The translations under genes were made by a program, and so were the position numbers. The notes under the pieces were generated by a model, which saw only the letters and a program-made list of their open reading frames with translations, was not told where the DNA came from and made no database searches. From assembly GCF_016862635.1 (NCBI RefSeq), contig NZ_BONI01000057.1:1-64000 (forward strand): a DNA stretch of 64,000 bases, read 5' to 3'. This document shows positions 49,801-52,800 of this stretch, piece by piece; the first letter of the stretch is position 1, and each line of letters opens with the position of its first letter. This DNA comes from Catellatospora coxensis (GTDB taxonomy: Bacteria; Actinomycetota; Actinomycetes; Mycobacteriales; Micromonosporaceae).

Positions 49801-52800
49801 GGTGGCCGCCTGCCAGGCGGCGGCGAGGTCCTCGAACAGGATGCGCCAGGACACGCCGTCGACGGCCAGGTGGTGCACGGCCAGCAGCAGGCGGCCCGGC
49901 CGGTCGCCGGCGTCGAACCAGACGGCACGCAGCACGCTGCCCGTGTCGGGGTCGAGCAGCGCGGTCGCCTCGCTGGCATGTTCGGCCAGCAGCCCCGGCA
50001 TCGCGGCGTCGTCCACACCCGACACGTCCACCCGCACCAGCAGGTCGGCGGCGGCGAGTCCGCCGGTCGGCTCGGTGCGCAGGGTCCACAGCACCGACGC
50101 GATGCGCTGCAGGCGCAGGCGCAGGCCGTCGTGATGGTCGAGCACCGTCTGCAGCGTCGCGGCGATGGACCGCTCATCGGCCCCGGCGGGGGTGACCAGC
50201 AGCATCGGCATCGTGAAGCGGTCGATCGCCGCGCCGGTGTCGCGCAGCCAGTGCACGATCGGCAGCAGCGGCACGTCCCCGACCCCGTCGCCCGCGTTCC
50301 CCGCTGCCCCGGCCGCGACGACGGCCGACGCCGCGCCGGTCGATCCGGCACCGACCGGACCGGCCCCCGCCGCAGCCCCCGCGGGCATGGCTCCGTCCGG
50401 CACCGCCCCACCCGGCGCGTCGCCGACGGTCCATGTCCCCGCAGCAGCAGCGGACATCTCGGTGGGCGTCGACATCTTTTCTGATGTGGCCACATCGTTT
50501 TCGATGTGGCGCGACGGCGAAGCACCTTCGGCTGCGGCGAGGTCGGCCAGGCGGCGCGGGGTGCGGGCGGCGAGCACGTCACGCGGGCTGATCGGCAGCC
50601 CCGCGCGCCGGGCGCGGCTGGACACGCCGATGGACAGGATGCTGTCCCCGCCGAGGGCGAAGAAGTCGTCATCCGGCCCGACCGCCGCGACCCCGAGCAC
50701 CACCCCGACGATCTCGCGCAGCACCGCCACCGGCCCGGTCACGGCCTCGCCCGTGATCGTCCGATTTGCCTGGCACTCGTGCGTATCTTGGCCGTGCTTT
50801 CGCCCACATGCCTGGCACGTCGGACGATCATCGCGGGGGGCGGGCAGGGCGGCGCGGTCGAGTTTGCCGCTGGAGGTGCGCGGGAGGGCGTCGAGGGCGA
50901 CGAACACGGCCGGGACCAGGGCCGGGGGCAGCGCGGCCGTGGCCGCCTCGCGGAGCGCGGCCGGGTCGAGCACGTGGCCGGCGGCGGGGACCGCGTAGGC
51001 GACGAGCTGGACCGCGCCGGGGCCGTCGGTGCGGGCGATCACCGCCGCCTGTACGACGTCGGGGCGGCCGAGCAGCCACGACTCGACGTCGGCCGGGTCG
51101 ATGCGGACACCCCGGATCTTGATCTCGTGGTCGGTGCGGGCCAGGTAGGTGAGCGTGCCGTCGGCGGCGCGGACGACGAGGTCGCCGGTGCGGTACATGC
51201 GCTCGCCGGGCGCGCCGGCCGGGTCGGCGACGAAGCGCGACGCGGTCAGCGCGGCGCGGCCGAGGTAGCCGCGGGCCAGCTGCGCGCCGGAGACGTACAG
51301 CTCACCGGGCACGCCGGCGGGCACCGGACGCAGGCAGTCGTCGAGCACGTGCAGGCCGGTGTCCGCGACGGGGCCGCCGATCGGCACGGCCGGGCCGTGC
51401 TGCCCGTCGTTGGGCCACCAGGTGACCTGCACGGCGGTCTCGGTCGGGCCGTAGAAGTTGTCCAGTCGGGTGCCGGTCGCCGACTCCCAGCGCCGGGCCA
51501 GGTCACCGGTCAGCGCCTCGCCGCCGCAGGAGACCCAGCGCAGGTCGCGGGCCCACGAGCGGTCCGCGAGCACGCCGTCGGCGAGCAGGAACGCCTCCAC
51601 CATGGACGGCACGAACGTGGCGGCGCTGACCCGGTGCGCCCGCATGAGCGCGGCCAGTTCGGCCGGGTCGTGCTGCGCGCCGGGCTCCGGCAGCACCACG
51701 GCGGCGCCGGCGATCAGCGGCCAGAACAGTTCCCATACGGAGGTGTCGAACGTGGCCGGGGCGAGCTGCAGCATCCGGTCGGCTGCGCGCAGCCCGAAGG
51801 TGCGCTGCGACCAGTCCAGCTGGTTGCCGATCGCCCGGTGCGTGACCAGCACGCCCTTGGGCCGCCCGGTCGAGCCGGAGGTGTAGATGACGTACGCGGG
51901 GTGCTCGGGGTCCACGGCCGCGGGCGCGCCGACGGCCTCGTCGGTCCCGGCGAGCACGTAGGACAGCCCGGCCCGGCGGGGCAGGCGGGCGAGCAGGTCC
52001 GGGGTCGTGACGACGGTGGCGACCCCGGCGTCGGCGAGCACCGCGTCGAGGTTCGGCGACGCGGGGTCGACGGGCAGGTACGCGGCCCCGCTGTACAGCA
52101 CGCCGAGCATGGCGGTGACCTGGCGGGCCGAGCGCGGCAGCGCGACCGCGACGACGTGTTCCGGCCCGGCGCCCCGGGCGGCCAGCCGCACCGCCAGCGC
52201 GGCGGCGCGGGCGGTCAGGGAGGCGTAGCTGAGCTGCTCGTCGGCCGCGATGACGGCGGTCGCGTCCGGGGTGCGGGCGGCCTGCGCGGCGACGAGCCAG
52301 GCCAGACCGTTTCCGCCCACGCCAGGCTCGCCGTGCACCGGGTCAGGACCGCGCTCGCCGTGCAGCGACGCAGAAACGCGAACGCCCTGCTGCGTCGCGG
52401 AGGCGGGAACGCCGTGCTGCGGATCGGCGGTGGATTCGCCGCGTAGCGGCGCGGGGGCGTCGCCGAGGTCGACCGCGCCCGCGGGCAGGTCCGGCGTGTC
52501 GAGCACGGCGTCGAGCAGCGCGGGCAGCCCGGCGCGCAGCCGGGCCAGGATCGCCGCGTCCAGCCGGGCCGGGTCGTGCTCGATGACCAGGGACAGCTCG
52601 TCGCCGGGGGTGGCGAGCAGGCTGACCGGGTAGTGGGTGGCCTCGCGGTAGGACACGCCCGCGACGCGGACCGTGCCGGAGCCGTCGCGCAGGTCGCCGC
52701 CGGCGGGCAGGTTCTCGACGCTGACGAGGCTGTCGAACAGCTCGCCGCCGCCCGCGAGCCGGGTGATCGCGGTCAGGCCGAGGTGCTGGTGGTCCAGCAG

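What the first reader, a model, noticed from the sequence alone, without database searches (positions are those of the whole stretch)
50755..50829. A genomic palindromic repeat has become 25 codons of an NRPS linker
The 75-bp element between the A2 and T2 domains aligns gaplessly to the intergenic repeat at 37058-37132, with 57 of 75 bases identical (including AAGATACGCAC). Both copies are 75 bp, an exact multiple of three, so the inserted copy keeps the frame. Palindromic repeats of this kind are normally between genes. Finding one as coding linker in a megasynthase suggests that a mobile palindrome inserted in frame and was tolerated.
Basis: seen in the sequence. Interest (0 to 1): 0.85.

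Follow-up and report, generated by a model that had tools for sequence, protein, structure and literature searches.

The report
Palindromic repeat coding an NRPS linker
A 75-base palindromic repeat that one genus of soil bacteria carries in many copies between its genes also sits, in frame, inside a giant peptide-making enzyme, where it encodes 25 amino acids of a flexible joint.

Summary
Confirmed. On the NRPS (minus) strand, 50755-50829 matches the intergenic repeat 37058-37132 at 57 of 75 bases. The repeat has 139 half-element matches in this genome (reversed control 0); exact matches in genome contigs were Catellatospora in 72 of 72 stretches. Of 98 copies examined here, 97 lie outside genes; the NRPS copy is the exception. 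The NRPS has orthologues in 8 of 11 genus genomes, all 8 with the element in frame; 12 of 12 outgroup orthologues read lack it. So insertion and tolerance are supported, but the event is old, while intergenic sites turn over (5 of 11 shared between G000 and G003). No RAYT: Y1 transposases occur in 6 of 11 genomes and 0 of 9 loci carry the element nearby. Additions: coding copies score with their own clade's repeats (8 of 8), and the next linker holds a second palindromic repeat, in a gene in 1 of 11 loci examined, this NRPS. In-frame palindromes are known from Rickettsia and REP-bearing species: a new member of a known kind.

The parts
50755..50829 (-). 75-bp palindromic repeat as codons 2110-2134 of the NRPS ([25 protein letters not shown]), in the A2-T2 linker
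40882..57156 (-). NRPS ORF, 5424 aa; Condensation, AMP-binding, PP-binding and AMP-binding_C domains
50539..50724 (-). T2 carrier domain (PF00550, residues 2145-2206)
37058..37132 (+). intergenic copy between convergent gene ends (called genes 35722-37053 + and 37131-37496 -); no element at the same junction in G003, G004, G006, G010; none beside the SDR-like gene in G001, where the neighbour gene differs
50470..50508 (-). second palindromic repeat (tandem ACATC-N6-GATGT hairpins) as codons 2217-2229, in the linker between T2 and the next condensation-family domain
9983..10024 (.). intergenic copy of the second repeat family, between convergent genes

Best explanation
A Catellatospora-specific 75-bp palindromic repeat, normally found in gaps near the 3' ends of genes, entered the low-complexity A2-T2 linker of a large NRPS in frame, after Catellatospora split from the other genera examined and before the Catellatospora orthologues found here diverged. 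It was tolerated because the linker varies freely in length and composition, the unit is 25 codons long, and the element is usually open in that frame. Shown: the family, its bias to gaps between genes, the coding copy in 8 of 8 orthologues, its absence from 12 of 12 outgroup orthologues read, the open frame, turnover of intergenic copies. Inferred: insertion rather than replacement of linker, movement by an unidentified factor in trans, and that the peptide is mainly tolerated rather than needed. Also inferred: later rewriting of the coding copy by, or in step with, the clade's genomic repeats.
For: Family and control. Genus restriction: 11 of 11 genus genomes and 0 of 50 others; 72 of 72 stretches Catellatospora. 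Bias to gaps: 97 of 98; 75 of 76 in named species, the exception L207 being the same NRPS; 21 of 21 in 944 kb of three genomes where 87-90% is called coding. Orthologues with the element 8 of 8; outgroups without it 12 of 12. Frame open in 135 of 146 distinct intergenic copies. Turnover: G000-G003 share 5 of 11 testable sites, G000-G004 0 of 5, G003-G004 2 of 4. Element pN/pS 0.72 against 0.32 for the A2 C-terminal half.
Against: No clean empty site: outgroup linkers cannot be aligned base by base, so junction and any target duplication are unknown; five intergenic presence/absence pairs gave no clear duplication either. Clade-1 and clade-2 coding copies are no more alike (58-63 of 75) than random intergenic pairs (mean 60.2) and carry clade-specific signatures, which one insertion with plain descent does not predict. 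pS in the element is also low (0.156 against 0.213), hinting at constraint or homogenisation of the DNA. No mobilising enzyme was identified. Two of 42 copies of G007/G002 overlap gene 3' ends, and some copies sit in long open frames that I took as chance frames in GC-rich DNA without examining each.
Confidence: 0.8

Rival explanations
1. Two independent in-frame insertions of clade-specific elements into the same linker, one in each Catellatospora clade, rather than one ancestral insertion.
For: Coding copies separate by clade subfamily: log-likelihood ratios +8.4 and +5.8 for G007 and G002, -1.9 to -5.8 for the other six; identity between the clades equals that of random copies.
Against: Same linker, orientation, frame and unit length in both, although copies inside genes are otherwise almost absent; the divergence is also near that expected from synonymous divergence of the gene.
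Confidence: 0.15
2. The peptide was domesticated: the 25 residues are selected as a folded or metal-binding linker (Cys/His at element codons 5, 8, 12 and 19).
For: 8 of 8 orthologues have Cys or His at codons 5, 8, 12 and 19; codons 8 and 12 are both C/H in 1 of 148 intergenic copies of G000 and named species and 0 of 41 of G007/G002. The unit has no indels in 8 orthologues while the linker before it does.
Against: Cys at codons 5 and 19 is set by the palindrome arms in nearly every copy (147 of 148 and 145 of 148); His at codon 8 is the commonest state in clade 2's repeats (24 of 41); codon 12 differs from the commonest CGC by one transition in each clade; pN/pS 0.72 is weak constraint. The AlphaFold2 model was uninformative, mean pLDDT 38.6.
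Confidence: 0.1
3. The DNA or RNA palindrome itself works inside the gene (transcription pausing, protein binding, mRNA processing) and the peptide is a by-product.
For: Intergenic copies favour convergent gaps (33 of 93 classified, against 15% of intergenic bases), as expected of 3'-end signals; the second repeat shows paired changes on both sides of its hairpins in the coding region; G002's coding hairpin is stronger than 64 of 81 intergenic ones.
Against: The other seven coding copies have weaker predicted hairpins than most intergenic copies; G004, G010 and G003 are weaker than all 81.
Confidence: 0.12
4. Chance similarity of a GC-rich linker to an intergenic repeat.
For: None found.
Against: E 2.4e-25 match at 89% identity to another copy; profile score 67 bits, among those of the intergenic copies.
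Confidence: 0.005

Closest known systems
Rickettsia palindromic elements (RPE; Ogata et al. 2000, 2002; seen only as described and cited in PMC10969869, passages)
   Same: Palindromic repeat inserted in frame in genes, encoding an extra peptide in otherwise normal proteins
   Different: About 150 bp by that review, with nearly half of the copies in ORFs there; here 75 bp and one internal coding copy among 98 examined, in another phylum; no sequence comparison with RPEs was made
Intragenic GTAG/CGTC REPs (Di Nocera et al. 2013, PMC3733652; abstract, passages and section 15 seen)
   Same: Mostly intergenic, mainly in tandem and convergent gaps near gene ends; some copies inside ORFs; different REPs at about the same site of recB in two Xanthomonas species
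   Different: Units of 20-40 bp tagged GTAG or CGTC at one end, many intragenic ones in DNA synthesis and repair genes; the word actinobacteria has 0 occurrences in that paper
REP/RAYT systems (PMC2817692; abstract start and passages seen)
   Same: High-copy palindromes, usually more than 100 per genome
   Different: No Y1 transposase with the element beside it, no GTAG head
MITEs in general (PMC10969869, passages)
   Same: Short non-autonomous repeat that can fuse in frame with genes
   Different: No parent transposon and no target duplication identified

Membership tests
REP / RAYT | high-copy intergenic palindrome | tested here: met
   139 half-element matches; 97 of 98 examined copies outside genes
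REP / RAYT | RAYT gene flanked by two inverted copies of the repeat | tested here: not met
   Y1_Tnp in 6 of 11 genus genomes; no element match at E<=10 in 9 of 9 Y1_Tnp loci, each 3.1-3.4 kb
REP / RAYT | GTAG or GTGG head at one end | tested here: not met
   consensus begins GATCGTTCGACTTGCC
CGTC-tagged REPs / RPE group | CGTC at one end | tested here: inconclusive
   CGTC lies at bases 4-7 of some copies, the consensus has CGTT there; not terminal
Protein-coding palindromes of the Rickettsia kind (as a mode, not a sequence family) | in-frame copy inside a conserved protein, absent from homologues | tested here: met
   8 of 8 genus orthologues with, 12 of 12 outgroup orthologues read without
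Protein-coding palindromes of the Rickettsia kind (as a mode, not a sequence family) | use in many unrelated genes | tested here: not met
   among the copies examined the only internal coding copy is this NRPS; two copies in G007 overlap gene 3' ends; not every copy was examined
MITE | target site duplication and parent transposon with matching ends | tested here: inconclusive
   five presence/absence pairs too diverged to show a duplication; no parent transposon sought beyond Y1_Tnp
Rfam RNA families | match above gathering score | tested here: not met
   0 matches at 50400-50900; at 36950-37250 three matches (mir-584 twice, snoTBR17), all below gathering score

The most novel reading that the evidence does not exclude
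Linkers of this megasynthase are rewritten by the genome's own repeat families: in two neighbouring linkers the coding copies carry the host clade's or species' version of the repeat (element 1: positions 50 and 23, 8 of 8 genomes; element 2: ACATC form in G000, ACAAC form in G006, with G004 and G001 as poor fits), through gene conversion, repeated targeted insertion, or shared recognition by one DNA-binding protein, so that dispersed non-coding DNA dictates the amino-acid sequence of an enzyme linker.
Probability: 0.3. Interest if true: 0.72.

Novelty: new member of a known kind. Interest (0 to 1): 0.5.

Why it matters
It gives a natural experiment on what NRPS A-T linkers tolerate: a 25-residue, Cys/His-bearing peptide of repeat origin kept in 8 of 8 orthologues found. 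It adds a case from an actinomycete megasynthase to protein-coding palindromes described from Rickettsia and from REP-bearing species. If the clade matching holds up, it offers a way to test whether dispersed repeats overwrite coding sequence, since one linker position can be compared with many non-coding copies in each species.

Tried and rejected
RAYT-driven spread: rejected. Chance similarity: rejected. Insertion in this strain only: rejected, 8 of 8 orthologues carry it. Zinc-knuckle reading: weak, see rivals; the AlphaFold2 job on the A2 end, linker and T2 with a two-sequence alignment gave mean pLDDT 38.6 and was not used further. Target-site duplication: not resolvable in five pairs. 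Rfam: nothing above threshold. Strong peptide selection: not supported (pN/pS 0.72). Strict species matching of the second repeat: fits G000 and G006; G004 and G001 have the ACATC form in the NRPS but few such matches in all (6 and 5, the NRPS copy included); the ACAAC form was not searched in G001, G003 or G004, and in G002 its reversed control also had 4 matches beside 28. Literature: the searches (listings seen) showed no title or abstract start on this repeat or on palindromic repeats coding NRPS linkers; the library lacks most subscription journals.

Full report
Observation. On the NRPS strand the 75 bases at 50755-50829 match the intergenic 37058-37132 without gaps at 57 of 75 positions; in plus orientation only 49. 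The element is codons 2110-2134 of the ORF 40882-57156 (-), reading [25 protein letters not shown], between the end of A2 and the T2 domain at residues 2145-2206.

The family. A 131-base query gave 40 scored element places in the 9.35-Mb genome out of 273 candidates, and a half-element pattern with up to 3 mismatches gave 139 matches against 0 for its reversed control (only a part of the 139 was listed). A profile from 51 copies gives a 77-column consensus, an imperfect palindrome around an asymmetric centre CAAGATACGCAC. The repeat was found in 11 of 11 genomes of the genus and in 0 of 50 others of the family and order. An exact pattern in genome contigs returned 72 stretches, all titled Catellatospora, five species; that pattern is fixed on the clade-1 form, so more distant variants would be missed.

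Where copies sit. Genes were called with a codon-usage caller written for this work and looked over on the window. Of this genome, 98 distinct copies fell as 53 tandem, 33 convergent, 7 divergent, 4 at contig ends and 1 in a gene, the NRPS. At least 40 further pattern matches were not examined. In 944 kb of three genomes, taken whole for synteny though anchored on one copy, 21 of 21 copies were intergenic while 87-90% was called coding. Of 42 copies from G007 and G002, 24 were convergent, 15 tandem, 1 divergent, and 2 overlapped the 3' ends of called genes as run-on tails in other frames. A peptide search listed other copies in long open frames, up to 1553 aa (G003) and 1258 aa (G000:C17); the latter was called convergent intergenic (L113), the former was not examined. 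In the three syntenic regions convergent gaps make up 15% of intergenic bases and 16% of gaps, and divergent gaps 30% of bases; of 93 classified own-genome copies 33 are in convergent and 7 in divergent gaps.

History of the coding copy. Orthologues (81-88% identity over the part searched, ORFs of 5316-5452 aa) exist in 8 of 11 genus genomes, own genome included; the best matches in G005, G008 and G009 are 48-49%. All 8 have the 75 bases in frame in the same linker. From 300 family genomes searched, 70 with a match at E 1e-130 or better, 12 outgroup loci of 59-66% identity were read; all 12 have Ala/Pro/Gly-rich linkers of varied length and none has the peptide. Their orthology rests on identity and ORF length, not on a tree. 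Intergenic copies come and go: the 37058 copy is absent from the same gene junction in G003, G004, G006 and G010, and from beside the same SDR-like gene in G001. Testable sites shared: G000-G003 5 of 11, G000-G004 0 of 5, G003-G004 2 of 4; sites without syntenic flanks were dropped.

Selection. Pooled over pairs of orthologues, pN/pS is 0.72 in the element and 0.32 in the C-terminal half of A2; pS is lower in the element (0.156 against 0.213). Twenty-five codons are few and pairs are not independent, so this shows only weak constraint on the peptide. The frame used is open in 135 of 146 distinct intergenic copies, and five of six frames are open in at least 100 of 146, so tolerance needs no special adaptation. 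Predicted hairpins are weaker than most intergenic ones in seven coding copies, three of them weaker than all 81; G002's is stronger than 64 of 81.

Clade matching. Repeats of G007 and G002 (41 full-length copies) differ from clade-1 repeats (89 copies of G000, G003, G004) chiefly at position 50 (C against A) and position 23 (A against C or G). The G000 set was partly collected with a pattern that favours A at position 50; in the regions taken whole, A still has 14 of 15, against 7 of 41 in G007/G002. Scored over all positions, clade-1 intergenic copies average -8.0 (highest 2.6), clade-2 copies +7.0 (lowest -1.4); the coding copies of G007 and G002 score 8.4 and 5.8, the six others -1.9 to -5.8, on the weak side of their clade. 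So 8 of 8 coding copies fall with their own clade. Plain descent from one insertion would need the same changes to arise in parallel; gene conversion, a second insertion, or shared recognition of the DNA would explain it. Identity between the clades' coding copies (58-63 of 75) is that of random intergenic pairs. One other 3-kb stretch is 90-92% identical to G000 in G003, G004, G006 and G010 and 81% in G007, which fits vertical descent of the two clades.

A second palindrome. Residues 2217-2229, in the linker between T2 and the next condensation-family domain (HHxxxD motif at 2428; E-type by my reading), are encoded by tandem hairpins of another repeat. ACATC-N6-GATGTGGCCACATC has 57 strand matches in this genome against 0 for the control; of 11 distinct loci examined 10 are intergenic and the one in a gene is this NRPS. 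G006's orthologue has the ACAAC form, which has 41 matches in G006 and 2 in G000, while the ACATC form has 6 in G006. The two-hairpin form reaches 12 or more of 14 pairs in 5 of 8 orthologues (base shuffles: 0.15%), with T-A to A-T changes on both sides; it is not found in place in G003 and G010 and is partial in G007. G003 and G010 have no ACATC-form match, G010 no ACAAC-form match. G004 and G001 keep the ACATC form in the NRPS with few matches elsewhere, which weakens the matching.

Driver. The one Y1_Tnp match in this genome has a stop inside and lies beside what I read as TnpB. Across the genus Y1_Tnp is found in 6 of 11 genomes; its five full-length, uninterrupted matches have frames of 150-157 aa, and 0 of 9 loci carries the element nearby. 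What moves or homogenises the repeat is unknown.

Place among known things. Palindromic repeats read in frame are known: Rickettsia palindromic elements (PMC10969869, passages) and intragenic REPs, whose families also favour convergent and tandem gaps and include different REPs at about the same site of recB in two Xanthomonas species (PMC3733652, section 15). This is a further, genus-restricted family without a RAYT, with one coding copy in a megasynthase linker. The eight literature searches named in the rejected section listed no earlier report.

Noticed in passing
window 50470-50508 and 9983-10024: A second palindromic repeat family (tandem ACATC-N6-GATGT hairpins) also has a coding copy in this NRPS, in the next linker, the only one in a gene among 11 loci examined; its form differs between species.
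   Followed up: partly
L316 1574-1649 and L325 1549-1624 (G007): Two element copies overlap the 3' ends of called genes, giving run-on C-terminal tails in other frames. A homologous gene in L182 is followed by an element copy that matches the L325 tail too.
   Followed up: partly
L067 (G003 NRPS linker): The first codons of the element appear twice in the linker (LDHPTSPTPVSLDHPTCQA), as if by partial tandem duplication.
   Followed up: no
L031 (G000:C10:62235-62555): Y1_Tnp match with a stop inside, beside an ORF that I read as TnpB without a family search.
   Followed up: partly
window 3428-3475: Perfect 21-bp inverted repeat with a 6-base loop; function not tested.
   Followed up: no
G000 contigs C56, C73, C107, C120, C127, C137: Element copies lie within about 80 bases of a contig end, as if the repeats broke the assembly.
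   Followed up: no
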